The position numbers and the translations under genes were made by a program. A stretch of DNA of 64,000 bases, from NCBI RefSeq assembly GCF_040529065.1, contig NZ_CP132343.1, forward strand, positions 806,001 to 870,000. The letters are read 5' to 3'. Shown here piece by piece: positions 3,526 to 25,507 of the stretch. Every line of letters begins with the position of its first letter. The stretch's first letter is position 1. The notes under the pieces were generated by a model. The model did not search any database. It was not told the origin of the DNA and saw only the letters and a program-made list of their open reading frames with translations. Origin of the DNA: Xanthomonas sacchari. GTDB taxonomy: Bacteria; Pseudomonadota; Gammaproteobacteria; Xanthomonadales; Xanthomonadaceae.

Positions 3526-3600
3526 CCGTACTATTCCCTCTTGTCGCGGGCGGTGGCTGGCCTCCTCGTCGGCTTGCCACCGTCCGCGTCATCCCCTCCG

Positions 3601-3623: not shown

Positions 3624-3644
3624 CGTCCCTGCGGCGCGCATTCT

Positions 3645-3673
3645 CTGACTTTCCCTCCCCGAGCGCGGATAAT
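3645..3673 (+). promoter_or_regulatory. Candidate sigma-70 promoter for cystathionine beta-synthase
   Basis: A -35-like CTGACT (3645-3650) and a -10 GATAAT (3668-3673) are separated by 17 bp, with the gene start at 3716. The match is 4/6 and 5/6 to consensus. Confidence 0.45.
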
Positions 3674-3715
3674 GCCCGGTCCAGCCGCTGCCGCGGCGCG
3701 ACGCATTCGGACCCG

Positions 3716-5086: not shown

Positions 5087-5091
5087 TCCCT

Positions 5092-5143
5092 GCGGTCGGC
5101 GCGGCCCCGCTGCATGGGGCCGTTCAGACCGCGCTGCTAGAAT
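5092..5143 (+). promoter_or_regulatory. Nested hairpin and TAGAAT -10 element before metB
   Basis: An inner cggcccc/ggggccg stem (5102-5122) sits inside an outer gcggtc/gaccgc pairing (5092-5097 and 5127-5132). It is followed by TAGAAT at 5138-5143, 26 bp before the metB ATG. No clear -35 was identified. It may end the upstream transcript and restart the next one. Confidence 0.35.
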
Positions 5144-5168
5144 CACGCCCCTTTTCCGGTAACCCTTC

Positions 5169-6353: not shown

Positions 6354-6377
6354 GCGCGTGGCGGTGGAGCCCCTCCG

Positions 6378-8548: not shown

Positions 8549-9789
8549 GCAATTCGGTACTGGTAGTCGATGGAGTGGGAAAGTGCTACCGAAGTTACGG
8601 GAGCGAGTTGCAGCGCTTCGCCAGTTGGTTCGGCATTCCCGTCAAGCCGCAGTCCGAGCATTGGGTGCTGCGGAATATCTCTTTCCGGATTGGACGCGGC
8701 GAAGCCGTTGGTCTGGTCGGACAGAACGGCGCTGGCAAGAGCACATTGCTCAAGATCATCACCGGGACAGTCCGCCCAAACGAAGGTTCAGTGATGGCCA
8801 CGGGGCGCATTTCGGCGCTTCTGGAGCTTGGACTGGGCTTCAATGCAGAACTGACCGGTCGTGAGAACGCCCGCCATGCTCTCGGCCTGATGGGGACATC
8901 GAGCCATGAAATTGAATCGATGCTCGAATCGATCGAGGAGTTTGCCGAGGTTGGCGAGTACTTCGACCAGCCGATCCGTGCCTACTCGAGCGGCATGCAA
9001 ATGCGCGTGGCCTTCAGTGTGGCGACTGCTGTGCGGCCGGAGACCCTGATTGTCGACGAGGCGTTATCGGTCGGAGACTCGTACTTCGTACACAAGTGCT
9101 TCAAGCGGATACGTGAGTTTCGTGAGGCCGGCACGACGTTACTGATTGTTTCCCATGATCCTGGAGCCATTCAGGCCTTGTGCGATCGCGCGCTGTTGAT
9201 CGAGGGGGGGCGGCTGATCAAAGATGGCGATCCGCAGGAAGTCATGGATTACTACAACGCCCTGATTGCCGAAAAGGAAAATAAGAGCGTCAGGACTGCA
9301 AGTACCGATGACGGTCGTACGGCGACCGAATCGGGCACTGGCGAGGCAGTGTTTGAGTCGATTCAACTTCTCGACGAGGCGGGTGATCCAGTTGAGTATG
9401 TTGGCGTGGGCGATGCGGTGACCCTGCGCTACAAGATTCGCGTTCACGAGCCTATCGACCGGCTCGTGCTCGGCTACATGATCAAGGATCGTCTGGGCCA
9501 GCCGGTTTTCGGCACGAATACCCACCACACCGGCCAGACTCAAGAGCGGCTGCAGGCGGGGGATCAATTAATCGCCGAGGCGCGCTTCCCTATGAACCTA
9601 GGCCCTGGGACGTACTCGGTCTCTGTGGCGTTGGCTAGCGCCGAAACCCATTTGGTCAAGAATTACCATTGGCGCGACTTGGCCTTGGTGTTCAATGTCG
9701 CCAATATCCGCCACGATACCTTTGTTGGTACTGCCTGGATTCCACCAATCCTGTCGATCGAAGTCCCGCGCGGAGAGCACTTGCCGTGA
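8545..9789 (+). CDS. wzt: O-antigen ABC exporter ATPase Wzt with carbohydrate-binding tail
   Basis: A 414-residue ATPase partner of Wzm. The nucleotide-binding domain (1 to about 255) shows Walker A GQNGAGKST (59-67), the signature YSSGMQMR (about 147) and Walker B TLIVDEALSVGD. The extra C-terminal about 150 residues, rich in beta-strand patterns (AVFESIQLLDEAGDPVEYV...), match the Wzt C-terminal domain that in E. coli O8/O9a recognises the modified non-reducing end of the finished chain. That predicts export coupled to chain termination, which fits the methyltransferase gene immediately downstream (GTGA overlap). Confidence 0.93.
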   Translation: MSNSVLVVDGVGKCYRSYGSELQRFASWFGIPVKPQSEHWVLRNISFRIGRGEAVGLVGQNGAGKSTLLKIITGTVRPNEGSVMATGRISALLELGLGFNAELTGRENARHALGLMGTSSHEIESMLESIEEFAEVGEYFDQPIRAYSSGMQMRVAFSVATAVRPETLIVDEALSVGDSYFVHKCFKRIREFREAGTTLLIVSHDPGAIQALCDRALLIEGGRLIKDGDPQEVMDYYNALIAEKENKSVRTASTDDGRTATESGTGEAVFESIQLLDEAGDPVEYVGVGDAVTLRYKIRVHEPIDRLVLGYMIKDRLGQPVFGTNTHHTGQTQERLQAGDQLIAEARFPMNLGPGTYSVSVALASAETHLVKNYHWRDLALVFNVANIRHDTFVGTAWIPPILSIEVPRGEHLP

Positions 9790-11283
9790 CGTCGCAGCCG
9801 AAGCCCGTTGTCACCTCCCCGCCAGCGCTGATGGAAATGAGCGTGGGCGAGATCCTGCGGAAGATCAATACGGCCGTACTCAGAAAAACGGCAACCGGAG
9901 TCACCGGCGTCGATTCCCTGTTTTGGCCGGAAAACTTTGAAATATGGACTGCGGCGGCACCCGCAACGCCGCCGCGAGAAGTCTATGAGGTGGCCGACCT
10001 GCTTTCCCAGGACGATGCCGACTTCGTCAGCAATGCGTATCGTGTGCTGTTGCGTCGTGCGCCGGACTCGGCCGGGTTTCTCGGGAATATCGAAGCGATA
10101 CGTCGAGGTGCGCAGACCAAGCTGGAAGTCATCGCCTCGCTGCGCTTTTCGCCCGAAGGCATGGCTGTCGGCGTACCAGTACGTGGGTTGCGTCTTGCCT
10201 GGTTGCTGCATCGCTGGAAGCGCAAGCCGCTGGTGGGTCCCATTCTCTCCTGGGCATATGAGCTGCTCTGCCTAGGGCGTCGCGGAAAGCAATTGGACTG
10301 GCTGGAGGTGCGCGGAGCGCGCGAGGTTCATCGATTGGGGCGGCACGTCAATCATGTCGTCCTTGAGGCGGGTGGCCGCCTTGAGGCGATCGAGCATGAG
10401 CTCTCTGCGTTGCGGGAGGCTCGCAAGGCGCTGGAGATTCTGGTGCAATCCAACGTGTCCTCGCTTGTCGAGATTGCAAGTTTTGCGCGAGAGCTGCCCG
10501 CTCGCCTGGAGCGTGATCAGGCAATCCTGTCGCGTCTGGAGGCGCGCGAAGGCCAACTGGCTGAGGAGGAAGCGCGGCGTGCCGCTCTTGCGCCACAGTT
10601 GGACGCGCTCTATTCATCTTTCGAAGATCGTTTCCGTGGACCCGAGTCGCTGATTCAGGCGCGTGCACGTCCCTATTTGCAGTTCGTTCGCGAGTGCGGC
10701 GCGGGGACGTTGGAGGCCCCAGTCATCGACGTTGGCTGTGGGCGTGGGGAGTGGCTCGCGTTGTTGCGTGACGAAGGACTGCATGCGCGCGGCGTCGACC
10801 TCAGTTCACGTTTCGCCAATGATGCGACGGCGCGAGGTTTGGATGTGATCGAAGGGGATGCAGTCGACGTGCTCCGTGCCATGCCTGCGGGCAGCGTTGG
10901 CGCGGTCACCTCGATGCACTTGGTCGAGCACTTGCCATTTGACCGTGTTGTGGAGTTCCTTGACGTGTGTCGTCACGTGTTGCGGCCCGGCGGCCTGCTG
11001 ATCCTGGAAACGCCGAATCCCGAGAATCTGGATGTGGCGACGATCTATTTCTACATGGATCCCACCCATCGCAATCCACTGCCGCCAGAGATGTTGCGTT
11101 GGGTCGTCGAGGCGCGTGGTTATCCGGATGCAAGAATCGAGCGGCTCAGCGAGGCGCGCGAGTTGAGCGCCCCCTCTCTGCTTCCCGACGCGCTGCCTGG
11201 ATCGCCCTCTGTCAACAGCCTCATCGCACGCACGCACGTCGCTCCCGACTATGCGATCGTTGCCCATCGTGGGGAAAATTCAC

Positions 11284-11291
<8 letters not shown>
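9786..11291 (+). CDS. Coiled-coil SAM methyltransferase with DUF4214 domain, candidate O-antigen chain terminator
   Basis: A 501-residue protein with a GTG start overlapping the wzt stop. Residues about 65-125 match a DUF4214 domain (NAYRVLLRRAPDSAGFLGN). Residues about 192-283 are a long heptad-rich coiled coil (EAIEHELSALREARKALE...). Residues about 310-470 form a class I methyltransferase with SAM motif DVGCGRGEWLALL (315) and the later MHLVEHLPF and VLRPGGLLILETPNPEN. O-antigen chains made by Wzm/Wzt systems are often capped by a methyl group added by an enzyme whose coiled coil measures length (WbdD). The domain content and position suggest this role, but no kinase domain is present and the order differs from WbdD. 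It could instead methylate a sugar precursor. Confidence 0.75.
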
Positions 11292-13169
<1,878 letters not shown>

Positions 13170-13191
13170 ACGACTGAGTAGGGGGAGTACG

Positions 13192-15687
13192 GTGCGTCTT
13201 GCTATCGACATGCAGGCGTGCTTGACCGATTCTCGCGATCGCGGCATCGGCAGGTATGCTGACAACTTAGTTGCCGAAATGGTGCGTCAGCGTCAGGACG
13301 ACGAGATCCTGTTGGCGCTTGATGGCGCGGACCCTTCGCGTCTGCGTCAAGCGCGATCGCGCCTGCGCCATCAGTATGTGCGTGCGGCAACGACAGTGAT
13401 GCACTACCCCACAAACGCTTTTGTCGATCATGATGCGCTGCGGATGCAAAGTGCCGCTCGTCTTCGTGGCAGATTCTTCGAATCATTGGGTGTGGATGCA
13501 CTGTTGCATACCAGCCACTTTGAAACGCGTGGCAGCTACACAACCGCAATTGACTGGGCTGCGGATCCACGACCCGGAACGGCAGTCATTGCATACGATG
13601 TGATACCGCTGCTTTACCCCGATCGTTATCTTGAGCCGGATCCGTTCTTAGCTGAATGGTATCCGCGCAAGTGTGAGAGTTTCAGTAAATTCGATTGTTT
13701 TTTGTCCATCTCACAAGCGACACGTGTAGATTTGATCGAGCAACTGGGTATTTCTCCAGAAAAGATTCACGTAATCAATGCCGGACTCGATCCGGACATG
13801 CTTGCCATTGCGCAGGCCGATTTACCTGTGGATGAGACTATCTTGGCGCGTCGGGGCATAGACGCGCCCTTCGTGCTGATGGTCGGCAACGGGGACTGGC
13901 GCAAGAACACCATGGGAGCGGTCGAGGCGTTCGCACGGTTGCCGCGTAGCCTCCAGAAGAAATATCTGCTTGTACTCACCCAAGTCGGTACGGATGTCAA
14001 AGAGGCGCTCGCAGGGGCCTTCTCGCAGATAGCGCCGCGGGTGCGCGTGCTTGGCCGGGTCGACGATGTCGAGTTAGCGACATTGTACCGGGCGTGTCGA
14101 GTGTTCTATTTTCCTTCGTTTTATGAGGGCTTTGGTCTTCCTGTGCTTGAGGCAATGGCGTTTGGTGCGCCTGTTTTAAGTGCCAACACAGGCAGTCTGC
14201 CTGAAGTCGTGCATGATCCGCGTTGCCTGTTCGACCCGCACGACATCGACGCGGCTGCATCGCTTCTTGAAGCCGCGCTGGAAGATGTGGCCTTTCGCGA
14301 GGTGTTGGTTTCCGGCGTCAAGGCTCATGCTTGGAAGTATGACTGGACGTCCTGTGCTGAAACCGCGCTCACGGCGATGCGGACTCTGGCAGGCGAAGCG
14401 AAGGCGGCGCAGCCTCAGTTTGGAAAGGTCGACGAGTTCGACCGCTTGCGAGTGACGCAGGACGACATCGATGCCTGGTCAGAGCTTCTTATTGCTGCGC
14501 CCGATGCGGGCGGCTCTTTGGAGGGAAGCCTGACAGCTGCGGCTGCGCGAGGTCGGCGCCGAATACTAGTTGATGTCAGCGAGGTGGTGAGACTGGATGC
14601 ACGCAGCGGCATTCAGCGTGTTGTCCGCAATTATTGCGCCGGCCTTCACGCGCTAGCTGAAGATGCTCAGGTGGAGGTTCAGCCTATTTGCTGGACTGAG
14701 CACGGCATCCTATACGCAAGTGACTACGCCTCCAGCCACTTGGGTATGCCAATTGACACGGTCAACGCCGGCATGCGAGTTGCGGTGAAGCCGAACGATC
14801 TGCTGTTGATGCTCGATTCGTCGTGGTGGAGTCCGGAACGATTCGATGCCCTGCACGCCCAGGTGGCGGCTGCAGGCGGCGAGGTGGTCTGGATGGTCTA
14901 CGATCTGATCCCCTTGCTGGTGCCACACACCTGCGATCCTGGCATGCCGCCGGCGTTCCGGAGATGGCTTGAGCATGCTGCCGCCACTGCGGATGGATTT
15001 GTCTGCATTTCTGAGGCGACGCGGCAGGATCTTGAGCGCTTCCTGGATGAGCAGCCTGCTCATCCGGTGGCAAGACCCTGGACGCGTGCTATGCACCTGG
15101 GCAGCGATCTGGAGTCTGGCCAGGTCGTCGGCCAGGCTTCAGAAACGATTGCTTCGCTGCTGGAAGGATTAGGGGCCAGACCGCTGGTCCTGGCAATTGG
15201 TACGGTCGAACCGCGTAAGGACTACGCCACTATCCTTGCTGCCTTCGAAAAAGTGTGGGCACGTGGCGGTGATGTCGCGTTGGCCATCGTCGGCAAGCAT
15301 GGATGGAATGTCGAAGAGCTTGTGCTGCAACTCAAATCGCATCCGCAATTGGGCACGCGACTTTTCTGGTTGCAGGGAGTTTCCGATACGGACCTTCACC
15401 ATTTGATGGACAGGGTGGACGTCTTGGTTCAGGCGTCGATCGCGGAAGGGTTTGGTTTGCCCGTGGTAGAAGCAGGTAGTCGCGGCAAGCCGCTTTTGCT
15501 CAGCGATCTCGACGTTTTCAAGGAGATCGCGGGCGAGGAGGCAAGCTACTTCCCGGTAGGCGATGCAGAGGCGCTGGCAGCTGAAATCGAACGCGGTGTG
15601 GCTGATGGGTGGAAGGTGCCGGCCAATATCCGGACTTTGACGTGGCGCGAATCTTCGCGTGGATTGATGGAGAAGTTGCTGTATTAG
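13192..15687 (+). CDS. Two-domain (tandem GT4) glycosyltransferase
   Basis: An 831-residue cytoplasmic protein made of two GT-B glycosyltransferases. The first (1 to about 410) ends with E-x7-E motif EGFGLPVLE (about 312); the second (about 456-831) starts RILVDVSEVVRLDARSG and carries EGFGLPVVE (about 749). Such fusions act as polymerases making alternating linkages (compare WbdA for mannan), so this is the likely D-rhamnan backbone synthase; that specificity is inference. The start is a GTG with GGGGGAG 10 nt before. G+C and codon use are visibly lower (TTT, AAA, TTG codons) than in flanking housekeeping genes, as expected for transferred LPS genes. Confidence 0.85.
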   Translation: MRLAIDMQACLTDSRDRGIGRYADNLVAEMVRQRQDDEILLALDGADPSRLRQARSRLRHQYVRAATTVMHYPTNAFVDHDALRMQSAARLRGRFFESLGVDALLHTSHFETRGSYTTAIDWAADPRPGTAVIAYDVIPLLYPDRYLEPDPFLAEWYPRKCESFSKFDCFLSISQATRVDLIEQLGISPEKIHVINAGLDPDMLAIAQADLPVDETILARRGIDAPFVLMVGNGDWRKNTMGAVEAFARLPRSLQKKYLLVLTQVGTDVKEALAGAFSQIAPRVRVLGRVDDVELATLYRACRVFYFPSFYEGFGLPVLEAMAFGAPVLSANTGSLPEVVHDPRCLFDPHDIDAAASLLEAALEDVAFREVLVSGVKAHAWKYDWTSCAETALTAMRTLAGEAKAAQPQFGKVDEFDRLRVTQDDIDAWSELLIAAPDAGGSLEGSLTAAAARGRRRILVDVSEVVRLDARSGIQRVVRNYCAGLHALAEDAQVEVQPICWTEHGILYASDYASSHLGMPIDTVNAGMRVAVKPNDLLLMLDSSWWSPERFDALHAQVAAAGGEVVWMVYDLIPLLVPHTCDPGMPPAFRRWLEHAAATADGFVCISEATRQDLERFLDEQPAHPVARPWTRAMHLGSDLESGQVVGQASETIASLLEGLGARPLVLAIGTVEPRKDYATILAAFEKVWARGGDVALAIVGKHGWNVEELVLQLKSHPQLGTRLFWLQGVSDTDLHHLMDRVDVLVQASIAEGFGLPVVEAGSRGKPLLLSDLDVFKEIAGEEASYFPVGDAEALAAEIERGVADGWKVPANIRTLTWRESSRGLMEKLLY

Positions 15688-16293: not shown

Positions 16294-18270
16294 TCAGTGG
16301 ACTGGCTCGATAGCGAGTCGCTGCAATGCAAAGCCGAGTTGTCGCCCATCCCCGCCAATCCCAGCGGAAACAGGGCTAAACGCATTTGGCGTTCTGATTT
16401 CGAGGGTGCACAAGTCACAATCAAGTGTGGTTTCCACGGAAGCGGAACCCTTCAGCGCAGCAGAGTAGATCCGCTTACCAGATAGCAGGACTTCAACCTG
16501 TTGCTCCTTGATGTTTCCTCCTAGGAAGGGCGCAACTTGTAAGGTCATGCGATCGCCTCGATGCGCTTTGAACTGCAGGGCGGCGCCATTTCCCAGGGAG
16601 TAAACGAAATCGCCTGTCGGTTCAGTGGTTGAAAACGAAGCGATAGAACAGTCCCTAATAGCCTCGCCGATGGCGTGGTCTCCTGCGTACATTTTTTGTG
16701 CCATTGCTGGTACGCAGAATGCATCTAGGTTGAGCGGCGATTGCTTCGGGGGATTCTCCCCGCTGCGCGGATTGATGAATATGGGGCTGGAAACCGTGTT
16801 GAGCGATAAAAGATCAAGGGAGTGCTGTTTCCCGAACATGAACTCCCAGTCGCGGTTCACGTAGACCGATGCGCCTTCACGGACCAGCTCAAGCACCAGT
16901 GCGGTCGTCATGGGCCATGACTCAGTTGTCACATCAACGAGCACGGTTTTCCCCTTCGCGGAGGGCATGATCTGAGACGGAAGCGTATATGTTTCCGCGC
17001 TCGAGAATGCCGGGTGGGGTTTGTAACTTAAGATAATGAAAACCCCAGCAAGCAAAAAAACTGCGGGCGCGATGGGTTTCGCGTACTTCTGTAGTAGCGC
17101 TGCAGCTCCTTCCATGATCAGGAAGAAGCTGATGGCGACCAAGGCGTAGACATAAAACGAGTTGAATTCATAGAGAGGGCCTGTAATACGCGTGGCCCAG
17201 AATATGGACATGACCAATGCGATCACAGCGGCGAGTGCCACATTCCTGTACCCGTGAGTTCGCTGACGCAGGGGGCCAAAGAGAATCGCTAGAGCGGAGA
17301 GGCACAGAAAAACAGCTGCAGGCCACGCGCTTGCTAATGTGACATTGTTGCTTGCGGCGGCCTCTGGATACGCATCAAACAGCCAGAAACCCAGGATGTA
17401 GCGCAGGGCGGAAGGAAAAGATGGGCACGGATCTTGGTTGGCGTGTAGGTAGGCAAGAACTTCCTGGATGTTGGATGGCCTTACAAAAATTGCGTTAATG
17501 AGAATGGGGAGCGCAAAAACAAACGCCATCACAAGCAGCCACGTCAGCGTCCGAGCATGCTGTCGCCAATTCCTACCCGTGCTCAGGATCCAGCCGACGG
17601 TTCCATAAGCGGCGACGGGAACGACCAGCGCCGCCTGCGCTATGTGTCCATGCACGCAGAATCCGAAGGCAAGCGCCAGTGCGATCAGACCCGAATCCTT
17701 TCCCCTAGATGCTGCGGCTGCTGCAATCACCAACAGAAGAAACGGCCCGAACAGAACGTGAGGCGGCCAGATGCTTGAGAGACTTCCAAAGGTCGTCAGG
17801 CCCAGGACGATGATGACAGCCAGTACCAAGGTGCTTGCAGCCCTCTTGGAGTCGCACACCAGCGCACAGAGGCTGGCCGAGAGGGCAACAAAAAAGCTCT
17901 GCAGGAGTATGCCAGCCAGGACATGCGCTTGATGCGGGCTGTTTACCAAGTGCAAAAGCTTGAAAAAGGCCAGTTCACCGAGCGCATAGACGTAGAAGAA
18001 TGCCGGGCCAGGGTGGTGGAAGTGCCAGCGAGAATAGTTTCCCAGCAGCTCCTTCAACGCTCCTGCGTTGGCAATCTGCAGGCCATTCGCCGCGAAGTCG
18101 CCGGATTCAAGGACTGCGGGGCCAAAAAGGAACTGGAATGTTCCGACGAACTGGGTGCACAGGATCACCACGAACGCGGTAAAGAAGATCATCCGCAGAT
18201 CTGGCTTGGTCAAGCTACTTGTGGGTGGCCCTTTGGGGAAAAGGAGGGCATTGGTATATTTCATGAGCAT
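16294..18270 (-). CDS. Polytopic membrane protein, predicted GT-C-type glycosyltransferase
   Basis: About 658 residues from the ATG at 18270; an in-frame TTG at 18303 would add 11, and neither has a good ribosome-binding site. About ten to twelve hydrophobic segments fill residues 30-440; a hydrophilic tail of about 220 residues should face the periplasm. Early loops carry ESGDFAANGLQ and HFHHPGPAFFYVYAL, the acidic and HPGP-type signatures often seen in GT-C transferases that use polyprenyl-phosphate sugars. As last gene of an operon making polyprenyl-phosphoryl arabinose, it is the best candidate for the transferase that uses that donor. I do not recognise a named family. G+C is clearly lower than in surrounding genes. 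Confidence 0.65.
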   Translation of the reverse strand: MLMKYTNALLFPKGPPTSSLTKPDLRMIFFTAFVVILCTQFVGTFQFLFGPAVLESGDFAANGLQIANAGALKELLGNYSRWHFHHPGPAFFYVYALGELAFFKLLHLVNSPHQAHVLAGILLQSFFVALSASLCALVCDSKRAASTLVLAVIIVLGLTTFGSLSSIWPPHVLFGPFLLLVIAAAAASRGKDSGLIALALAFGFCVHGHIAQAALVVPVAAYGTVGWILSTGRNWRQHARTLTWLLVMAFVFALPILINAIFVRPSNIQEVLAYLHANQDPCPSFPSALRYILGFWLFDAYPEAAASNNVTLASAWPAAVFLCLSALAILFGPLRQRTHGYRNVALAAVIALVMSIFWATRITGPLYEFNSFYVYALVAISFFLIMEGAAALLQKYAKPIAPAVFLLAGVFIILSYKPHPAFSSAETYTLPSQIMPSAKGKTVLVDVTTESWPMTTALVLELVREGASVYVNRDWEFMFGKQHSLDLLSLNTVSSPIFINPRSGENPPKQSPLNLDAFCVPAMAQKMYAGDHAIGEAIRDCSIASFSTTEPTGDFVYSLGNGAALQFKAHRGDRMTLQVAPFLGGNIKEQQVEVLLSGKRIYSAALKGSASVETTLDCDLCTLEIRTPNAFSPVSAGIGGDGRQLGFALQRLAIEPVH

Positions 18271-18313
18271 CGTATTTATAATATCCGTGAAGGGCGAATT
18301 CAACGAGGCGCGT

Positions 18314-18718
18314 TCATTGCGGTGAGGCGATCTTGAAGCTCAGATGCTTGTGCCCAATAAAGCTCGTGAAGATGGGTGTGATCACGCCCACGGCGTGTGC
18401 AACGGCTTCGGGATAAAAATTGAACCCGACCGATGGGAAAAGCCAGCGTGCCAGCAGCAAGCTGATCGCGATCGTCTGCAAGATGGCGAGTATGTTCACG
18501 GTCACGAACCAGAACGCCTGCTTATGCAGCGCGTTTCCCGCTTTTTTGAACACGAACTGGCGGTTAAGCACGAACGCGATCGTCATGCCAATCAGGTAGG
18601 CCAGCGCGATAGCGGGGACATAAGCGAGCCAATGGCTCAGGAGGATTCGCGAGGAAAAGTTGGCCGCGGCAGCAATGCCTCCCACGACCACAAAGCCGAT
18701 GAACTGACGACTGATCAT
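18314..18718 (-). CDS. GtrA-family membrane protein
   Basis: A 134-residue protein with four predicted membrane helices and the GtrA pattern (FIGFVVVGGIAAAANF near the start, LNRQFVFKK in the middle, ending FIGHKHLSFK). GtrA proteins are linked to moving polyprenyl-phosphate sugars across the inner membrane, and a GtrA-like gene (Rv3789) sits beside dprE1/dprE2 in mycobacteria. Here it overlaps the upstream FAD gene by 4 bp (ATGA) and precedes the predicted GT-C gene. It is therefore a good candidate for flipping or presenting polyprenyl-phosphoryl arabinose. Confidence 0.85.
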   Translation of the reverse strand: MISRQFIGFVVVGGIAAAANFSSRILLSHWLAYVPAIALAYLIGMTIAFVLNRQFVFKKAGNALHKQAFWFVTVNILAILQTIAISLLLARWLFPSVGFNFYPEAVAHAVGVITPIFTSFIGHKHLSFKIASPQ

Positions 18719-20013
18719 GCCTGCGACAGCGCCGTTCGCGCGAGCTGGCTCCCTACTGCAATGCTCTCATTGATCGAGCGATCTTCCGGGTAGTAATACG
18801 CCGTATCGGCCATGTAGAAGCCCTGCAGCGGCGTCTTCATCGGCGGCAGCATGTCCTGGAAACCAGGCGGGCAGATGGTCTGCGCGTACTCGTAGCGATG
18901 GCAATGGGTGGCGCGGATCCACTCCGGCTTGAAGTCCGGATTGATCATCGGCAGGTAGCTGATGACCTCGTCGATCAGTTGCTGGTTGCTCCACTGCCAC
19001 TTCGGGTGGGTCTTGGGCATGTAGTAGGGCGCATACACGATGTGCTCGCCCGGACCCTTGCCGGGGTTGAGGTTGCTGTACTCGATCAGGCCGGGGATGG
19101 CGATCCGCTCGTCGCTGATGTTCATCCAGAAGTTCTCGCTGACCGGCTTGGACAGCTTCAGGATCACGCAGGCGACCGGGATGTTCTCGATCGCGGCGAC
19201 CTGGTCGGCGAAGGCCGTGGGCAGGCCGGGCACCATGCCGGGCACGTACTGGATCGGGGCCGTCGATACCACGCCGTCATAGGCATGATGGCCGTCGCGG
19301 GTGCGGATGCCGGTGACCTTGCCGTCGACCGAGGCGACTTCCTCGATCGGCTGCGACAGCAGGATGCGTCCGCCCAGGCGCGTCACTTCTGCGGCCATGC
19401 GCTCCAGCAGCACGGCCGAGCCGCCCTCCAGATAGCCCATGCTTTCGTTGAACAGGTTGCGTCGCGACAGCGCCACGCGCTTGATGCGGGTGCCAATCCA
19501 CGACGCGGACAGGTCGTTCTGGTATTCGAAGAACTTCAGTGCGAAGGCCTTCTCCCACATCACCTTGTAGGCCTTGGGGCCGATCCAGCGGGTGATCCAG
19601 TCGCGCGCGTTCTCCTTGTCCAGCGCGGTCCAGTCGCTGATGCCCTTGGTGTGCATGACGTGCAGGGCGTAACGGATCTTGTCGACCAGCCCCAGGTGCG
19701 GGAAGCCGAGCAGCGCGAACGGCGTGCCCCACTTGTGCAGCTTGCCCTGGTAGTAGTAGCCCATCTTGGTGTCCGTCCAGTGCAGGCGGTCGGACAGCTT
19801 CAGGTCCTCAAGCAGCTTGAACAGCGGGAAATCGGTCTTGCAGATGAAGTGGTAATAGCGCTCGATGCGCAGGCCGTCGAAGTCGAAGTCCGCGGACATG
19901 CCGCCGATGCGGTCGTCGCGTTCGTAGACGTCGACCTGGTGGCCCTTCTTCAGCAGTTCCATGGCAGCCATCAGGCCCATGGGGCCGCTGCCGACGATCG
20001 CGAATGTACTCAT
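18715..20013 (-). CDS. FAD-dependent oxidoreductase (amine oxidase/UGM-like fold)
   Basis: A 432-residue flavoprotein with an N-terminal dinucleotide fold IVGSGPMGLMAAMEL, then the acidic strand end VYERDDRIGGMSADF that binds the FAD ribose, and a C-terminal FAD-contact region FYMADTAYYYPEDRSINES. The overall pattern is that of the protoporphyrinogen-oxidase/amine-oxidase/UDP-galactopyranose-mutase group. The exact substrate is not evident. Its place in a sugar-lipid operon suggests a sugar or sugar-lipid redox or ring-contraction step rather than haem synthesis. It is followed by gtrA with a 4-bp overlap. Confidence 0.75.
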   Translation of the reverse strand: MSTFAIVGSGPMGLMAAMELLKKGHQVDVYERDDRIGGMSADFDFDGLRIERYYHFICKTDFPLFKLLEDLKLSDRLHWTDTKMGYYYQGKLHKWGTPFALLGFPHLGLVDKIRYALHVMHTKGISDWTALDKENARDWITRWIGPKAYKVMWEKAFALKFFEYQNDLSASWIGTRIKRVALSRRNLFNESMGYLEGGSAVLLERMAAEVTRLGGRILLSQPIEEVASVDGKVTGIRTRDGHHAYDGVVSTAPIQYVPGMVPGLPTAFADQVAAIENIPVACVILKLSKPVSENFWMNISDERIAIPGLIEYSNLNPGKGPGEHIVYAPYYMPKTHPKWQWSNQQLIDEVISYLPMINPDFKPEWIRATHCHRYEYAQTICPPGFQDMLPPMKTPLQGFYMADTAYYYPEDRSINESIAVGSQLARTALSQA

Positions 20014-20035
20014 GGTTCTGGTCTCGTATGACGGG

Positions 20036-20980
20036 TCAGCGCTTGAGCACGATGTGGCTGTAGCGCGGGTCGGTATAGCTTTCGCGGATCGCGTCTTCGA
20101 ACGGCGTCTGGCGCACGCCGAACACCGCTTCGGTATCGACGCCCTTGAAGTCGTCGCCGGCGCTCAGCGCCTTCAACTGGTCGGCGGTGAACGGCGGCTT
20201 GGAGCTGAAGAGCGAATACACGCGCAGCAGGAAGGCGAAGAAGCCGATCGGGATATGCACGATCACGGTGTGCAGTTTCTTGACCCGCTTGATCGTCTTG
20301 ATGATGTCGACGTAGTCCACCCGGGTGTCGCCGACGATGTCGTAGACATCGCCGTCGGGTTCGCGCTCGATGCACTTGGCGATGCAGCGGCAGAAGTCGC
20401 GCTCGTACAGCGGCTGGCGCATGAACCGGCCATCGCCCGGAATCGGGAACACCGGGGTCTTGGCCATGAAGCGCGACAGCCAGCCCAGGTGCTTGGGATC
20501 GAACCAGCCGAACATCAGGGTCGGGCGCAGCACGCAGTGGCGCAGGCCGCTGGCGACCACCATCTCTTCCTGCGCGCGCTTGGTGTTGGTGTAGTCGTCC
20601 TTGGCCACCGAGTTCACCACCGAGGAGCTGATGTGCACCAGGTACGGCACCTTCGCCGCGCGGCAGGCATCGAGCACGTGCGCGGTCGCGGTCAGGTTGT
20701 TGCGGGTGAACAGGTCGGTGGTCTTGCCGGTGATCTGTGCGTGCAACTGGGCCACGCACGCCGCGCCCTCGAATTCGCGCGCCCAGTCGCCAGGCTCGGC
20801 CAGATCCGCCTCGACCACGCGCACGGCCGGATGCAGTTCGCGCAGGATCTGCAGGTTATGCGCATGCTTGTCGATCGCCACCAGCTGGGTGTAGCCCTGC
20901 TGCTCCAGTTCGACGATCAGGTTCTGGCCGACCAGGCCCGCGGCGCCGGTGATGACGATCTTGGCGTGTTTGTCGGTCAT
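20036..20980 (-). CDS. NAD-dependent sugar epimerase/dehydratase
   Basis: A 314-residue extended SDR with the N-terminal NAD motif TGAAGLVGQN, a Ser-rich strand HISSSVVNSV and the catalytic pair in DYTNTK. The second half (FMRQPLYERDFCRCIAKCI) is typical of nucleoside-diphosphate-sugar epimerases. The substrate is unknown. It begins 1 bp before the stop of the upstream dprE2-like gene region ends and is clearly in the same operon. It might make a second modified sugar or act on the ribose/arabinose branch. Confidence 0.75.
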   Translation of the reverse strand: MTDKHAKIVITGAAGLVGQNLIVELEQQGYTQLVAIDKHAHNLQILRELHPAVRVVEADLAEPGDWAREFEGAACVAQLHAQITGKTTDLFTRNNLTATAHVLDACRAAKVPYLVHISSSVVNSVAKDDYTNTKRAQEEMVVASGLRHCVLRPTLMFGWFDPKHLGWLSRFMAKTPVFPIPGDGRFMRQPLYERDFCRCIAKCIEREPDGDVYDIVGDTRVDYVDIIKTIKRVKKLHTVIVHIPIGFFAFLLRVYSLFSSKPPFTADQLKALSAGDDFKGVDTEAVFGVRQTPFEDAIRESYTDPRYSHIVLKR

Positions 20981-20981
20981 G

Positions 20982-21710
20982 TCAGAGCTTGATCCTGCGG
21001 AAGACGAATTCGGGAATGGATTTGATGACGAACATGATCGCCCACCAGAAACCGGGCAGGTAGGCGACCGCGCGGCGGCCGTCCACCGCGCGCAGGATGC
21101 CCTTGGCGATCTGGTCGGGCTTGGCCCACAGCGCGCCCTTCTTGAAGGCGGCGGTCATTGGCGTATCGACGAAACCCGGCTTGATCGTGAGCACGTTGAT
21201 GCCCTCCGGGCGCAGGCGCTGGCCGAGGCCGCTCAGGTAGGCGCTGACCGCGGCCTTGGCGCTGCCGTACAGGTAATTGCTGGCGCGGCCGCGGTCGCCG
21301 GCCACCGACGAGATCACCGCCAGCGTCGCGCCCGTGCGCAGGCGCGGTACCAGTGCGGCGCACAGGGCGATGGTCGCGGTGCCGTTGGTGGCGAACTCGC
21401 GCATCGATAGGTCGACCGAGGCGTCGCACGCGGCCTGGTCGGGCAGCGTGCCGTGGGCGATCAGCACCACGTCCACGCCACCCAGCGCGGCCCAGGCGGC
21501 ATCGAAGGCCGCCGCATGGCCGGCGCTGTCGTTGACGTCGAGCACGCCGACGCTGGCCTTGCCGCCGCGCGCCGACAGGTCCGACGCGATCGCGTCCAGG
21601 CGCGCGGCCTGGCGGCCGAGCAGGTGGAGGGCCGCGCCGCGCGCGGCGTAGTGCCGGGCGGTGGCCTCGGCGATGGCCGAGGTGGCGCCGATGATGAGGA
21701 CGCGTTGCAT
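20982..21710 (-). CDS. dprE2: DprE2-like short-chain dehydrogenase (2'-keto-arabinose reductase)
   Basis: A 242-residue classical SDR. The cofactor turn is GATSAIAEATA, as in mycobacterial DprE2; the catalytic serine is about 135 and the Tyr-x3-Lys is Y148-G-S-A-K152. In mycobacteria DprE2 reduces decaprenylphosphoryl-2-keto-erythro-pentofuranose to decaprenylphosphoryl-arabinose. The start ATG at 21710 has GGAG just upstream and lies 2 bp after the DprE1 stop, so the pair is translationally coupled exactly as expected for partner enzymes. Other SDR roles are possible in isolation, but the neighbour makes this call strong. Confidence 0.82.
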   Translation of the reverse strand: MQRVLIIGATSAIAEATARHYAARGAALHLLGRQAARLDAIASDLSARGGKASVGVLDVNDSAGHAAAFDAAWAALGGVDVVLIAHGTLPDQAACDASVDLSMREFATNGTATIALCAALVPRLRTGATLAVISSVAGDRGRASNYLYGSAKAAVSAYLSGLGQRLRPEGINVLTIKPGFVDTPMTAAFKKGALWAKPDQIAKGILRAVDGRRAVAYLPGFWWAIMFVIKSIPEFVFRRIKL

Positions 21711-21712
21711 GT

Positions 21713-23020
21713 TCACTCCGTGACCCGGCGCCAGAAGCCGGAAGAAAAGCGGGGATCGAGATAGCGGCTGAAGTCCTGCCAGCGGGCATAGGCACGCTGG
21801 AACGAGGCGGCGGACATGCGCGCGTCCTTGGCAGGGTACAGAGCGCCGCCAGCTGCGTCGACAATCCGGTCCAGCCGCTCCAGCAGGCGCAGCACCTCGG
21901 CGCCATCGTTGGGGAAATCCAGCGCCAGCGTAGTGCCCGGTCGCGGGAAGGACAGCATGCCGCGTGCAGGCACGTCGCCGAATTCCTTCAGCACGGCCAG
22001 GAAGGAACCGCTGCCGCTGCGGGCAATTTCCGCCAGCAGCGCGTCCACGCCGTCGCGCGCGGTGGCCGGCGGCAGCACGCACTGGTATTGCAGGAAGCCG
22101 CGCGGGCCGTACATGCGATTCCAGTGGCGGATGCCGTCCAGCGGGTAGAAGAACGGCAGCAGGTGGCTCAGCCGGCGCTTGCTGCGCGCGGGCTGGCGCC
22201 AGTAGTACAGCGCGTTGAACGGCCGCAGCGACAGCTTGTTGACCAGGGAGACGGGCGGGGTCAGCGGCATCGCCAGGCCCTTGCCGGGCGAGGCCGGGCG
22301 TTCCTCGGGCAGACCGGCGCAGTGATCGGCGCGGGTGAAATGGCCGCGGCCGCGGGCGCGGCCGCTGGCCAGGCAGTCGATCCAGGCGACGCTGTACTCG
22401 TGGCTGTCGGCCGAGGCCGCGGACAACGCAAAGAACTCGTCAAGCGAGCCGAAGCGGATGTTCTCCGTTTCCAGCGCCGGACCCGGCACGCGGCGCAACT
22501 GGATCTCCACCCAGGTGATCAGCCCGGTCAGACCGAGCCCACCGACCGTGGCCGCGAACCAGCCGTCGGCATCGGCGTCCGGCGTGCACAGGCGGCGGCT
22601 GCCGTCGCTGCGCAGCAGTTCGAAGGCGCGCACGTGGTGGCCGAAGTTACCGGTGCGGTGATGGTTCTTGCCATGCACGTCGTTGGCGATGGCGCCGGCC
22701 ACGGTGACGTAGCGGGTGCCCGGCGTCACCGGCAGGAACCAGCCCTGCGGCAGGACCAGGTCGATGATCTCGGCGAGCGTGACCCCGGCCTCGCAGCGCA
22801 GCCGACCTGTCGCCGGGTCGAAGCCGATGAAGCGGTCCAGGCCGCGCGCACACAGCAGGGTGCCGTCGGGATTGAGGCAACTGTCGCCGTAGCTGCGGCC
22901 GTTTCCGCGCGGCAGCGCGTTGCCGGCGAAAGCCGGCAGGGCCGCCGCCCGGTCGGCGATCGGCAGCAGCGTCTGCGTCGCGTGCGGATAGCGTCCCCAG
23001 GACTGCCCGGCATCGGCCAT
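21713..23020 (-). CDS. dprE1: DprE1-like FAD oxidase (polyprenylphosphoryl-ribose 2'-oxidase)
   Basis: A 435-residue flavoprotein of the VAO/aldonolactone-oxidase group. FAD-domain motifs are RGNGRSYGDS (38-47), VTPGTRYVTVAGAIANDVHG and HGKNHH (116-121), which match mycobacterial DprE1 closely, including the conserved His. TVGGLGLTG follows. Near the C-terminus YPAKDAR places Lys398 at the catalytic lysine. The residue equivalent to the benzothiazinone-target Cys387 is Ala366 (GTTLALDFP). It should oxidise the 2'-OH of polyprenylphosphoryl-ribose; DprE2 then completes the epimerisation to arabinose. The start overlaps the UbiA gene stop (ATGA). Confidence 0.85.
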   Translation of the reverse strand: MADAGQSWGRYPHATQTLLPIADRAAALPAFAGNALPRGNGRSYGDSCLNPDGTLLCARGLDRFIGFDPATGRLRCEAGVTLAEIIDLVLPQGWFLPVTPGTRYVTVAGAIANDVHGKNHHRTGNFGHHVRAFELLRSDGSRRLCTPDADADGWFAATVGGLGLTGLITWVEIQLRRVPGPALETENIRFGSLDEFFALSAASADSHEYSVAWIDCLASGRARGRGHFTRADHCAGLPEERPASPGKGLAMPLTPPVSLVNKLSLRPFNALYYWRQPARSKRRLSHLLPFFYPLDGIRHWNRMYGPRGFLQYQCVLPPATARDGVDALLAEIARSGSGSFLAVLKEFGDVPARGMLSFPRPGTTLALDFPNDGAEVLRLLERLDRIVDAAGGALYPAKDARMSAASFQRAYARWQDFSRYLDPRFSSGFWRRVTE

Positions 23021-24468
23021 CAGATGGCGCTCAGCGCGAACAGTCCGCACAACACCACGACCACCTGGCTGACCCGGTCGGTGGCGGCGAACACGATGGG
23101 GTCGTCGTGCATCTCGCCGCGGTGCGCCACGATCCAGACCCGGCTGACCCAGTACAGCAGCACCGGGCAGATCAGCCACAGCAGCTTCGGGTGCCGGTAC
23201 AACTGCACGCTTTCCGGGCTGTTGATGTAAAGCGCCATCACCATGACCGCGATGTAGCCGGCCGCCGCGCCCATCGACTGCAGCAGCACCAGGTCTTCCA
23301 CCGAATAGGCGCGCCCACTGGCCTTGGTCTTGCCGCTGCCGAGCATCGCGTGCAGTTCGGTGTAGCGCTTGAGCAGCGCCAGCGAGAGGAAGATGAACAT
23401 CGAGAACGCCAGCAGCCAGAACGACAGTTCCAGGTCGATGGCCACGGCGCCGCCGATGATGCGTACGGTGTACAGTGCCGCCAGCAGCACCACGTCGATC
23501 ATCACGATGCGCTTGAGCCGCAGCGAGTACGCCAGCGTCATCACGTAATAGGCCAGCAGCACCAGGGTGAACTGCAGGTTGCAGGCCAGCGACAGCGCCA
23601 GTCCGGCCACGGTCAGCGCGGGTGCGGCGAACAGGCCCTGCAGCAGCGGCAGCCGGCCGGCGGCGAACGGCCGCTTGCGCTTGCGCGGATGCTGGCGGTC
23701 GGGCGTGAGGTCGAGCAGGTCGTTGAGCACGTAGACGCCAGAGGCGCACAGTCCGAACGCGACCATGGCGATGACCGATTGCAGCAACGACTCGCCCTCC
23801 AGGAAGCGATGCGCGGTCAGCAGCGGTACGAACACCAGCAGGTTCTTCAGCCACTGGTGCAGGCGCAGCGCCTTGAGCCAGGCGCGGGTACGCGGCTGTG
23901 CCGGCCAGTGCCCATGCACGGTGGTGCGCTGGGCGGCGGCCGCACGCAAGCCGTTGCCGTTGTTGACCACCCAGGCGCCGCCGGCCTTGTCCCACACGTG
24001 CAGGTCCACGCGGCCATTGCCGGCATAGTCGAAATTGCCTTCGCCGAACCGCTGCACCAGCACGTCGGCCTTGTTGCGGCCGGACAGGTTGCGCTGGCCG
24101 TCGCTGGCGATGACCTCTTCGAACAGGCCCAGGTGCGCGGCGATCGGCGCGACCAGCAACTGGTCGGAGGCGGTGCACAGCACGCGCGGGCGCTGCGGCG
24201 TGGTGCGCAGCAGCTCCAGCACGTGCTCGTTGTAGGGCAGGGTCTCGGCCGGGAGGATGACCCGGGCGGCCAGTTCGCGCTTCAGTGCGGCCTTGCCGCG
24301 CAGCAGCCACAGCGGCAGCAGGAACACGTACAGCGGGTTGCGCGCCAGAAGCGCCAGCAGGGACTCGTAGAGGATGTCCGAATTCAGCAGCGTGCCATCC
24401 AGATCCACGCAGAGCGCGCGCCCTGAAGCAGCCGGGCGATCGGCGGGAAGGCTGGGGGGGACGGACAT
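23020..24468 (-). CDS. HAD phosphatase-UbiA prenyltransferase fusion (polyprenylphosphoryl-5-phosphoribose synthase type)
   Basis: A 482-residue fusion. Residues about 18-185 are a HAD hydrolase with DLDGT at 22-26. Residues about 195-482 are a nine-helix UbiA prenyltransferase with the Asp-rich motif N249-D-x2-D and DRQHPRKRKRPF, then YSLRLKRIVMIDV. These are hallmarks of decaprenyl-phosphate:5-phosphoribose-1-diphosphate phosphoribosyltransferase (Rv3806c). The HAD half could remove the 5-phosphate to yield polyprenylphosphoryl-ribose, so one protein would do both steps before DprE1. The ATG at 24468 is chosen over an upstream in-frame TTG. Confidence 0.82.
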   Translation of the reverse strand: MSVPPSLPADRPAASGRALCVDLDGTLLNSDILYESLLALLARNPLYVFLLPLWLLRGKAALKRELAARVILPAETLPYNEHVLELLRTTPQRPRVLCTASDQLLVAPIAAHLGLFEEVIASDGQRNLSGRNKADVLVQRFGEGNFDYAGNGRVDLHVWDKAGGAWVVNNGNGLRAAAAQRTTVHGHWPAQPRTRAWLKALRLHQWLKNLLVFVPLLTAHRFLEGESLLQSVIAMVAFGLCASGVYVLNDLLDLTPDRQHPRKRKRPFAAGRLPLLQGLFAAPALTVAGLALSLACNLQFTLVLLAYYVMTLAYSLRLKRIVMIDVVLLAALYTVRIIGGAVAIDLELSFWLLAFSMFIFLSLALLKRYTELHAMLGSGKTKASGRAYSVEDLVLLQSMGAAAGYIAVMVMALYINSPESVQLYRHPKLLWLICPVLLYWVSRVWIVAHRGEMHDDPIVFAATDRVSQVVVVLCGLFALSAI

Positions 24469-24529
24469 TCTGCGGCCTGGCAATGCACAGTGGGGCCGCG
24501 ATTATACCCGTGACACGCCCTGGCCTCGC

Positions 24530-25507
24530 TCAGTCTGCTTGACGCCGTTGCAGGAACTCGGTCGCACCCATCGCCAGGGCGCCCACGGCGACCGCATACC
24601 AGAGCGTCACCAGCCGCGCGGCCACCGCGACCGCGATCGCATCGGCGGTGGCGACTCCCAGCCGGTCCAGCATCAGCACGATCGCCAGTTCGGTGGTGCC
24701 GACCCCGCCCGGGACGAAGGACAGCGCGCCGATCAGCATCGCCAGCGGGTAGATGCCGAACGCGACCAGCGGGTCCAGGTGCAGGCCCAGGCCGTGGCAC
24801 AAGCCGACGAAGACCGCCGAGGTCAGGCCCCAGGCGCCGGCGCCCGCGATCAGGCTGCGTACCATCTGGGTGGTGCCCAGGCAGGCACGCAGTTCCATGG
24901 CGGCGAACACGGCGAACTGCGCCGTGCCCCGCAGCCAGCGCCCGGGCAGACGCCGGCCCACGCCCTCCAGCCAGGCCAGCAGGGCCGGCCAGGCCGCAGC
25001 GCCGAACAACAGGGCGACAAAGCCCAACACCACCGCGGCGAGGGTGCCCAGGGTGGGGAAGACCGGCGCAGCCAACAGCGACAGCGCCAGGATCACCAGC
25101 AGGTCGGAGGCGCGCTCGAACACGAACACCGCCAACGTCCGCCCGGCCGGTACGCCCATGCGGGCGAAATAGCGGATACGCAGCAGTTCCCCGGCCTTGC
25201 CGGGCGTGGCGGTCAAGGCGAAACCGGCCAGGTACGCGGCCCAGCCCAGCCAGAACGGCACTGCATGGCCTTGCCGTTGCAGCAGCCAGCGCCAGCGCCA
25301 GAAGCGGAACAGGTAGCTGGCCGAGACCGGCAGCACCGCCACTGCCAGCAACGGCCAGATCGTGCCCAGCCGGGCGAACGTGCCGTTACCGCGGTCGATC
25401 CACCACAGGGCGGCCAGGTAACCGCCGCACAGCAGCACGACGAACAGCGCCAGATGATCCGCACGGTGGCGCGGCGCGGGCACGCCGTCGGCGCCGTGCG
25501 GCATCAT
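24530..25507 (-). CDS. Flippase-like integral membrane protein (LPG synthase TM/UPF0104 family)
   Basis: A 325-residue protein with about eight membrane helices and family marks: [11 protein letters not shown] in an early loop, [13 protein letters not shown] (the G-K-x-GE motif), [10 protein letters not shown] and [12 protein letters not shown] near the C-terminus. The family includes the membrane half of MprF and AglD-like proteins, sometimes tied to lipid or lipid-sugar flipping. It is the first gene of the leftward operon and is separated from the HAD-UbiA gene by about 60 bp. A role in moving the lipid-linked sugar is inference. Confidence 0.8.

What the first reader, a model, noticed from the sequence alone, without database searches (positions are those of the whole stretch)
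16294..25507. A complete polyprenyl-phosphoryl-arabinose type pathway inside the Xanthomonas LPS locus
Four contiguous, overlapping genes encode in order a HAD-UbiA fusion, DprE1, DprE2 and (after two more) GtrA. This is the mycobacterial set for decaprenylphosphoryl-D-arabinose, including the GtrA neighbour seen there. The DprE1 match includes RGNGRSYGDS, HGKNHH and the C-terminal AKD. A related pathway is described for D-arabinofuranose on pilins of some Pseudomonas aeruginosa. Here it sits between the O-antigen operon and etfA with a predicted GT-C enzyme and flippase-like protein. That suggests a lipid-linked pentofuranose decorates O-antigen, pilin or another surface polymer.
Basis: partly seen in the sequence, partly recalled or inferred. 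Interest (0 to 1): 0.8.

Follow-up and report, generated by a model that had tools for sequence, protein, structure and literature searches.

The report
Lipid-linked pentose cassette in LPS locus
This Xanthomonas-type genome carries a gene cassette that very probably makes a pentose sugar on a membrane lipid, as tuberculosis bacteria do for arabinose, and two extra enzymes genetically linked to it suggest the sugar is remodelled further, perhaps to L-xylose, before it is attached to the cell-surface O-antigen.

Summary
On the minus strand at 25507-16294 lie a flippase-like protein, a HAD-UbiA fusion, DprE1-like, DprE2-like, an NAD-epimerase, an FAD enzyme, GtrA and a candidate GT-C, between an ABC-transporter O-antigen operon and etfA. 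The UbiA part's best solved relative is mycobacterial DPPRS; catalytic motifs are intact. The pathway idea is largely in print: Kelly et al. 2024 proved the HAD-UbiA/GT-C system and mention elaborate Xanthomonas versions; Patil et al. 2007 listed these genes in two Xanthomonas LPS loci. Epimerase and FAD enzyme occur together, and DprE1 is in all 9 carriers among 119 family genomes, all 8 among 398 phylum genomes and 72 of 80 named carriers (7 cut short, one without it in 5 kb). So the product is probably not plain arabinofuranose. Favoured, unproven reading: the FAD enzyme turns lipid-P-D-Araf into the pyranose, the epimerase inverts C4, giving lipid-P-L-xylose, a side-chain sugar of some Xanthomonas and Ralstonia O-antigens. 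Against: the FAD fold does not single out a mutase; one X. citri O-antigen is described as only rhamnose; 16 genomes that look like Ralstonia lack the epimerase.

The parts
24530..25507 (-). flippase-like membrane protein, 325 aa (LPG_synthase_TM / TIGR00374 type); candidate accessory flippase
   Evidence: Pfam PF03706 133.7 bits, TIGR00374; a relative found in 24 of 80 named cassettes, in all 24 after GtrA
23020..24483 (-). HAD-UbiA fusion, 487 aa from TTG or 482 aa from ATG at 24468; predicted polyprenyl-phosphate phosphoribosyltransferase with 5'-phosphatase domain
   Evidence: NF006088 680.6 bits; 8j8j DPPRS E 2e-27; NDxxDxxxD in 66/66 and DxDGT in 65/66 of the proteins compared
21713..23020 (-). 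DprE1-like oxidase, 435 aa
   Evidence: 4aut E 2e-74; H116, K118 and K398 conserved in 68/68
20982..21710 (-). DprE2-like SDR reductase, 242 aa
   Evidence: best solved relative DprE2
20036..20980 (-). NAD-dependent extended-SDR epimerase, 314 aa ('Epi'); predicted second sugar epimerase, favoured as a C4-epimerase
   Evidence: PF01370; S118-S120, Y130, K134 invariant in the 12 aligned; glycine motif and YxxxK in 80/80
18715..20013 (-). FAD enzyme, 432 aa (NF005560 family, no known function); favoured as a furanose/pyranose mutase
   Evidence: AlphaFold2 pLDDT 90.8; fold of the phytoene desaturase / PPO / amine oxidase / UDP-Gal mutase superfamily
18314..18718 (-). GtrA-type small membrane protein, 134 aa; predicted flippase for the lipid-linked sugar
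   Evidence: PF04138 65.7 bits
16294..18303 (-). candidate GT-C glycosyltransferase, 669 aa from TTG or 658 aa from ATG at 18270, about 11 TM helices by hydropathy plus a C-terminal domain
   Evidence: no Pfam/NCBIfam hit; hydropathy; 22-23% identical full-length relatives inside the same cassette of Burkholderia anthina, B. dolosa and two more
7550..15687 (+). neighbouring O-antigen operon: Wzm, Wzt with Wzt_C, methyltransferase, two GDP-mannose-dehydratase-like enzymes, GT4-GT4 protein; predicted acceptor polymer

Best explanation
The operon is a donor-making cassette plus a transfer unit that decorates the O-antigen on the periplasmic side. Steps: (1) HAD-UbiA puts ribose-5-P from PRPP on polyprenyl phosphate and removes the 5'-phosphate (activity shown in Citrobacter by others, inferred here from homology). 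(2) DprE1/DprE2 invert C2 and give lipid-P-D-arabinofuranose (inferred from family and motifs). (3) The epimerase and the FAD enzyme, which occur together and next to the genes of step 2, convert this product further (inferred from linkage). Favoured chemistry: the FAD enzyme changes the furanose to the pyranose as UDP-galactopyranose mutase does, which frees O-4; the epimerase then inverts C4. D-Arabinose with C4 inverted is L-xylose, so the product would be lipid-P-L-xylopyranose. (4) GtrA, perhaps with the UPF0104-type protein, flips it. (5) The GT-C puts it on the polymerised, rhamnose-rich O-antigen (that the backbone is rhamnose-rich is inferred from the neighbouring genes and the genus). 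The donor genes stay constant while GtrA and GT-C are exchanged between strains, which would move the same sugar to other acceptor positions. The stated confidence is for conversion beyond arabinofuranose and use on the O-antigen; I give L-xylose as the product about 0.4.
For: Enzyme families and intact motifs. Linkage: Epi and FAD orthologues in the same 9 of 119 family genomes, all among the 13 with full-length DprE1; in the same 8 of 398 phylum genomes, all among the 59 with DprE1, hypergeometric P 1.5e-7 for the DprE1 link (genomes taken as independent, which they are not). Among 80 named loci (the best 80 of at least 510 relatives), 65 of the 67 with at least 6 kb upstream hold UbiA, DprE1 and DprE2 there in that order, and 76 of 76 with room have FAD next to Epi; the two exceptions have DprE1 elsewhere in the genome. 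Of the other 13, five show DprE1 in the stretch held. The Epi/FAD label changes 8 times, at least 6 forced, on the DprE1 tree, so the link was made or broken several times. [quoted passage not shown] axonopodis pv. citri 306 and X. oryzae BXO8 (PMC2238763), and exchange of GtrA/GT-C in the near relative G058 (donor genes 91-98% identical, GtrA 53%, GT-C not found). L-xylose: partial L-xylosylation of an X. campestris pv. begoniae rhamnan (passage and reference title in PMC5786101); rhamnose and xylose, configuration not given, reported for X. translucens LPS (PMC8042644); non-stoichiometric beta-L-Xylp in Ralstonia solanacearum OPS (PMC10450222).
Confidence: 0.6

Rival explanations
1. The pathway ends at lipid-P-D-arabinofuranose; the epimerase and FAD enzyme act on another sugar of the same glycan or are accessory.
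For: DprE1/DprE2/UbiA alone are complete for Araf, and 4 of 13 family loci have DprE1/DprE2/UbiA without Epi/FAD. Kelly et al. link DprE1/E2 homologues with Araf-containing glycans.
Against: All 16 different carrier genomes of the two random samples (9 family, 8 phylum, the window's own in both) have DprE1, and the operon order is the same across several phyla and with many different neighbouring genes, which fits a substrate link better than a shared glycan.
Confidence: 0.2
2. Epi inverts C3 (as ORF13 of Citrobacter youngae O2 does for ribose to xylose), alone or with the FAD enzyme as the oxidising partner, and the product is lipid-P-D-lyxofuranose.
For: Epi has a TGxxGxxG-like motif and YxxxK like ORF13; a C3 change on Araf gives Lyxf; an FAD oxidase plus an SDR mirrors DprE1/DprE2.
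Against: Lyxf is in no solved carbohydrate structure according to Kelly et al.. A C3-epimerase working on lipid-Ribf should also occur without DprE1; none was seen in the random samples, but only 4 HAD-UbiA genomes without DprE1 were in them. ORF13 itself was not available for comparison.
Confidence: 0.12
3. The lipid-linked pentose goes to something other than the O-antigen (pilin, another surface polymer, or a small molecule).
For: Arabinofuranose on type IV pilins of Pseudomonas aeruginosa, with a related donor pathway (told in PMC11127046). In Burkholderia stagnalis the cassette sits among isonitrile-synthase, glycosyltransferase-type and methyltransferase genes.
Against: Here the genes lie between the Wzm/Wzt O-antigen operon and etfA, as in the LPS loci of two other Xanthomonas, and the GT-C varies between strains as expected for serotype-specific transferases. 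Pilin genes were not examined.
Confidence: 0.12

Closest known systems
Three-component extracytoplasmic pentofuranose glycosylation (Citrobacter youngae O1/O2; HAD-UbiA, MATE flippase, GT136; Kelly et al. 2024, PMC11127046)
   Same: HAD-phosphatase fused to a DPPRS-type UbiA with NDxxDxxxD; an epimerase gene; a GT-C-like polytopic protein; the place beside a Wzm/Wzt O-antigen locus
   Different: DprE1/DprE2 plus a further epimerase and an FAD enzyme; GtrA and a UPF0104-type protein instead of a MATE protein; GT-C not shown to be GT136. The authors themselves mention more elaborate Xanthomonas systems with several candidate epimerases or GT-Cs
Mycobacterial decaprenylphosphoryl-D-arabinose pathway (Rv3806c, Rv3807c, DprE1, DprE2, Rv3789, Emb/Aft)
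   Same: UbiA, DprE1 and DprE2 homologues and a GtrA-type protein; conserved DprE1 residues
   Different: phosphatase is a fused HAD domain; the transferase has no Pfam match; DprE1 has Ala where mycobacterial DprE1 has the Cys bound by benzothiazinones (Cys role recalled); Epi and FAD added
LPS loci of X. axonopodis pv. citri 306 (AAM38431-AAM38439) and X. oryzae pv. oryzae BXO8 (ORF8-ORF17), Patil et al. 2007, PMC2238763
   Same: the same genes, named prenyltransferase, oxidoreductase, dehydrogenase, epimerase, phytoene desaturase, GtrA, beside etfA
   Different: no pathway or product was proposed in the passages and sections read; BXO8 has a methyltransferase between DprE2 and Epi
UDP-galactopyranose mutase
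   Different: no mutase family among the 7 Pfam matches or the 25 of 42 NCBIfam matches shown; lipid-phosphate rather than nucleotide substrate proposed

Membership tests
Three-component pentofuranose glycosylation system (Kelly et al. 2024) | polyprenyl-phosphate phosphoribosyltransferase with HAD-type PRP domain and NDxxDxxxD motif | tested here: met
   motif as told; activity itself not testable
Three-component pentofuranose glycosylation system (Kelly et al. 2024) | MATE-family flippase in the cluster | tested here: not met
   none of the eight proteins lists a MATE model in Pfam; GtrA and LPG_synthase_TM instead
Three-component pentofuranose glycosylation system (Kelly et al. 2024) | GT-C fold transferase of family GT136 | tested here: inconclusive
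   polytopic with conserved acidic residues near the first loop but no family hit; structure job failed and could not be repeated
Mycobacterial DPA pathway | DprE1 and DprE2 homologues with conserved residues | tested here: met
   (conservation counted for DprE1 only)
Mycobacterial DPA pathway | NCBIfam equivalog score for DprE1 (500) and DprE2 (250) | tested here: not met
   367.5 and 167.8 bits
Mycobacterial DPA pathway | separate, non-HAD phosphatase and Emb/Aft transferases | tested here: not met
   HAD domain fused instead; the transferase candidate has no Pfam match; only the eight proteins were checked
UDP-galactopyranose mutase (FAD enzyme) | match to a mutase family model | tested here: not met
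   best models are Amino_oxidase (all 7 matches shown) and NF005560 (25 of 42 shown)
UDP-galactopyranose mutase (FAD enzyme) | superfamily fold | tested here: met
   but equally close to amine oxidases and less close than phytoene desaturase
UDP-galactopyranose mutase (FAD enzyme) | furanose/pyranose isomerisation | not testable with these tools
   needs enzyme assay
Hydroxysqualene dehydroxylase HpnE / phytoene desaturase | NCBIfam equivalog score | tested here: not met
   HpnE 64.9 bits against 283; phytoene desaturase TIGR02731 40.2 against 569
GalE-like SDR epimerases (incl. ORF13) | TGxxGxxG-like and YxxxK motifs | tested here: met
   80/80 named relatives (first motif searched as G[AG]AG[LF][VI]G)
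GalE-like SDR epimerases (incl. ORF13) | position epimerised (C3 or C4) on a lipid-linked pentose | not testable with these tools
   needs enzyme assay

The most novel reading that the evidence does not exclude
A mobile, widely shared six-gene cassette (HAD-UbiA, DprE1, DprE2, epimerase, FAD mutase, GtrA) is the unrecognised bacterial route to L-xylose: PRPP to lipid-P-D-Ribf to lipid-P-D-Araf to lipid-P-D-Arap (an FAD mutase acting on a polyprenyl-phosphate sugar) to lipid-P-L-Xylp (C4-epimerase), used by exchangeable GT-Cs to L-xylosylate surface glycans in Pseudomonadota, Chlorobiota and beyond.
Probability: 0.38. Interest if true: 0.82.

Novelty: new variant of a known kind. Interest (0 to 1): 0.6.

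Why it matters
The core pathway is known from other bacteria, so the find as first stated is mostly anticipated. The new point is a two-enzyme extension that is linked to it in nearly all carriers that could be examined and that defines a product I found assigned nowhere. If the product is L-xylose, it would give a route to a sugar found in plant-pathogen O-antigens; my searches listed no paper that names such a route, but only listings and a few papers were looked at. It would also be a flavin mutase acting on a lipid-phosphate sugar, of which I know no case (recall). It turns a family that NCBI calls 'hypothetical protein' (NF005560) into a testable enzyme.

Tried and rejected
UbiA as 4-hydroxybenzoate or heme enzyme: rejected by scores (ubiA_proteo 28 bits, cyoE 43 bits, against NF006088 680.6) and by the solved relative.

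FAD enzyme as squalene/carotenoid enzyme: scores far below the equivalog cut-offs; the fold comparison cannot decide. The plain Foldseek search was not accepted.

Ralstonia test of the L-xylose idea: no Ralstonia among the best 80 of at least 510 relatives (cut by the cap, so it shows nothing). A 16S primer for the solanacearum group gave 0 of 200 genomes in the family of G435. One genus of that draw (g281) had 0 of 16 genomes with the epimerase. 16S of 11 of these 16 was fetched: seven show a stretch I recall from Ralstonia pickettii, three another and one a third. A plasmid search with one of them gave Cupriavidus at 96.5% as the nearest, so the naming rests on recall. R. solanacearum itself was not identified; the test is unfinished and what there is speaks against.

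Structure of the GT-C: job failed and could not be repeated. Plasmid and phage searches: 7 plasmid records and no phage record with the epimerase. Paper searches that gave nothing more on point: DprE1 with Xanthomonas beyond Kelly, wxcX (whether WxcX is this DprE1 remains unknown), Xylp with Burkholderia. Casabuono et al. 2011 is not held; it is cited from a review passage.

Rows dropped before counts: weak Epi hits in the family (4 genomes, 77-86 bits) and phylum (G198, 110 bits); weak FAD hits (G085, G105; G270); DprE1 hits of 52 bits or less in the family. In one search hits under 60 bits (DprE2) or 150 bits (Epi, FAD) were dropped. Of the 80 named loci, 13 have under 6 kb upstream: five show DprE1, seven end within 0.2-2.5 kb without it, and L152 lacks it in 5.4 kb. 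The FAD alignment for the fold used the window and 61 of the 76 full proteins. DprE1 tree: the window, 12 family and 29 phylum proteins (29 of the 58 phylum hits besides the window) and 67 of the 80 named loci.
Full report
WHAT IS THERE. The window is G000:C1:806001-870000 of a 4.96 Mb single-contig genome. Eight genes on the minus strand run from 25507 down to 16294: flippase-like (325 aa), HAD-UbiA (487 or 482 aa), DprE1-like (435), DprE2-like (242), NAD-epimerase (314, 'Epi'), FAD enzyme (432, 'FAD'), GtrA (134) and a polytopic protein (669 or 658). Starts and stops mostly abut or overlap by a few bases, so an operon is likely. On the other side of a 0.6 kb gap, convergent, lies an O-antigen operon with Wzm, Wzt with its C-terminal domain, a methyltransferase, two GDP-mannose-dehydratase-like enzymes and a double GT4 protein; upstream of the cassette lies etfA.

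IDENTITY OF THE KNOWN PARTS. HAD-UbiA scores 680.6 bits against NF006088, and its next best models are decaprenyl-phosphate phosphoribosyltransferases. Its best solved relative is the mycobacterial enzyme 8j8j (E 2e-27). NDxxDxxxD, which Kelly et al. tested by alanine replacement in Citrobacter ORF15, is present in 66 of 66 proteins compared and the HAD DxDGT in 65 of 66. DprE1 and DprE2 find their mycobacterial namesakes first among solved proteins, although below the NCBIfam equivalog cut-offs. In 68 of 68 DprE1 proteins the His, Lys and Lys of HGK and AKD are kept, and the column that holds the benzothiazinone-binding Cys in mycobacteria (role recalled; column from the alignment) is Ala.

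WHAT IS ALREADY IN PRINT. Kelly et al. 2024 (PMC11127046; outline, sections 5, 7, 11 and 12 and passages seen) proved a three-component system of HAD-UbiA, MATE flippase (predicted) and GT-C that puts ribofuranose, or xylofuranose after epimerisation, on an O-antigen; they connect DprE1/E2 homologues with Araf glycans and say that more elaborate systems with several candidate epimerases or GT-Cs occur in Xanthomonas. Patil et al. 2007 (PMC2238763; [quoted passage not shown] axonopodis pv. citri 306 and X. oryzae BXO8 under general names, and only the dehydrogenase, oxidoreductase and membrane protein in Stenotrophomonas maltophilia R551-3.

THE TWO GENES THAT WERE PASSED OVER. In 119 genomes of the family, 13 have a full-length DprE1 (388 bits or more), 9 have Epi (542 bits or more) and 9 have FAD (656 bits or more); the 9 are the same genomes and all lie within the 13. 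UbiA, DprE1 and DprE2 relatives lie together in all 13, though in two of them (G073, G014) only the UbiA part matches and in G073 it is divergent. In the 9 the order continues with Epi, FAD and GtrA, in some with an insert. In 398 genomes of the phylum, Epi (347 bits or more) and FAD (448 bits or more) are in the same 8, all within the 59 with DprE1; hypergeometric P is 1.5e-7 for Epi within DprE1 and 7e-17 for Epi with FAD (genomes are not independent). In all 8 (seven, the window) the order is the same apart from inserts, with one split over two contigs. The two exceptions have DprE1 elsewhere (2 of 2). Of the 13 with less upstream sequence, five show DprE1, seven end within 0.2-2.5 kb without it, and one, L152 (a Desulfoplanes bin, 5.4 kb upstream), has a UbiA without HAD part and an 801-codon frame but no DprE1; the rest of its genome was not searched. 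The 80 span Burkholderiaceae, Comamonadaceae, Pseudomonas, Methylococcaceae, Chlorobiaceae bins and others. The same six genes lie in a row on plasmids of Burkholderia stagnalis, Agrobacterium salinitolerans and a Rhodobacteraceae strain. On a DprE1 tree of 109 proteins, presence of Epi/FAD changes 8 times (at least 6 forced by well-supported branches; shuffled mean 23.7; quick method), so the link was made or broken several times. A limit: 22 of 26 genomes with HAD-UbiA over its cut-off have DprE1 anyway, so the random sample alone would not separate need for DprE1 from need for UbiA (5 Epi carriers among the 22, 0 among the 4).

DOES L-XYLOSE FIT. For: an O-chain of X. campestris pv. begoniae is a 'partially L-xylosylated L-rhamnan' (reference title and passage in PMC5786101); X. 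translucens LPS composition points to rhamnose and xylose (configuration not given), and Xanthomonas O-antigens are commonly polyrhamnans with single-sugar side chains, in some cases in irregular pattern (PMC8042644 passages); Ralstonia solanacearum O-polysaccharide has terminal beta-L-Xylp in only part of its repeats (PMC10450222 passages). Partial substitution is what periplasmic addition after polymerisation would give. Against: the same review gives one X. citri O-antigen as a rhamnose polymer; the xylose of Xylella is assigned as D; 16 of 16 genomes of a genus that I take for Ralstonia lack Epi, with the solanacearum group not recognised. No strain with a solved L-xylose O-antigen could be checked for the genes. 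I hold L-xylose at about 0.4.

TRANSFER AND TARGET. GtrA is the likely flippase; the UPF0104-type protein at 24530-25507 has a relative after GtrA in 24 of 80 named cassettes. The last protein has about 11 TM helices by hydropathy and a C-terminal domain and distant full-length relatives inside the same cassette of Burkholderia anthina, B. dolosa and two others. In 41 of 42 named cassettes with 1.4-2.6 kb between DprE2 and Epi the longest frame of the gap encodes a protein with at least 7 hydrophobic segments (the exception, L150, may be a wrong frame). The near relative G058 keeps the flippase-like gene through FAD at 91-98% identity while its GtrA is 53% identical and its GT-C has no match; GC falls from 0.68-0.72 (first four genes) through 0.65 and 0.63 to 0.55 (GtrA, GT-C). 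This is the picture of a constant donor and exchanged transfer genes, as expected for O-antigen serotype change. That the last protein has the GT-C fold was not confirmed.

VERDICT. Observation confirmed; the lipid-linked pentose interpretation is sound but largely anticipated; the arabinofuranose end point is doubtful. The part worth a specialist's time is the epimerase-FAD pair and the product it defines.

Noticed in passing
L118 (Burkholderia stagnalis plasmid, about 1-12700): The six-gene cassette follows an isonitrile synthase, a nucleotide-sugar-binding glycosyltransferase-type protein and a methyltransferase: it may supply a sugar to a natural product rather than to LPS.
   Followed up: no
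L119 (Agrobacterium salinitolerans pDG3-1a): The cassette sits on a plasmid typed as conjugative, with an IS3 transposase about 5 kb away; a direct view of its mobility.
   Followed up: no
window 21713-23020, residue 366: DprE1 column of the mycobacterial benzothiazinone-binding Cys (role recalled) is Ala here and in all 68 DprE1 proteins compared.
   Followed up: partly
window 9669-11291: Methyltransferase with a long N-terminal part beside Wzt with a Wzt_C domain: looks like a chain-terminating cap system for the O-antigen.
   Followed up: no
L034 8226-8897 (G064): A methyltransferase gene stands between DprE2 and Epi, as ORF13 does in X. oryzae BXO8: the pentose may be O-methylated in such strains.
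   Followed up: partly
L103, L108, L109: Two sub-types of DprE1/DprE2 (DprE2 only 38-43% identical to the window) go with the same Epi/FAD, so the second module has been paired with different DprE lineages.
   Followed up: partly
L153, L160, L166, L167, L174-L176, L185 and L182: The cassette is also in Chlorobiaceae/Chlorobiota bins and one Anaerolineales bin, outside Pseudomonadota.
   Followed up: no
L152 2115-7397 (Desulfoplanes bin): Epi and FAD with a UbiA that lacks the HAD part and an 801-codon frame, no DprE1 on this 7.4 kb contig: a possible counter-example to the DprE1 link.
   Followed up: partly
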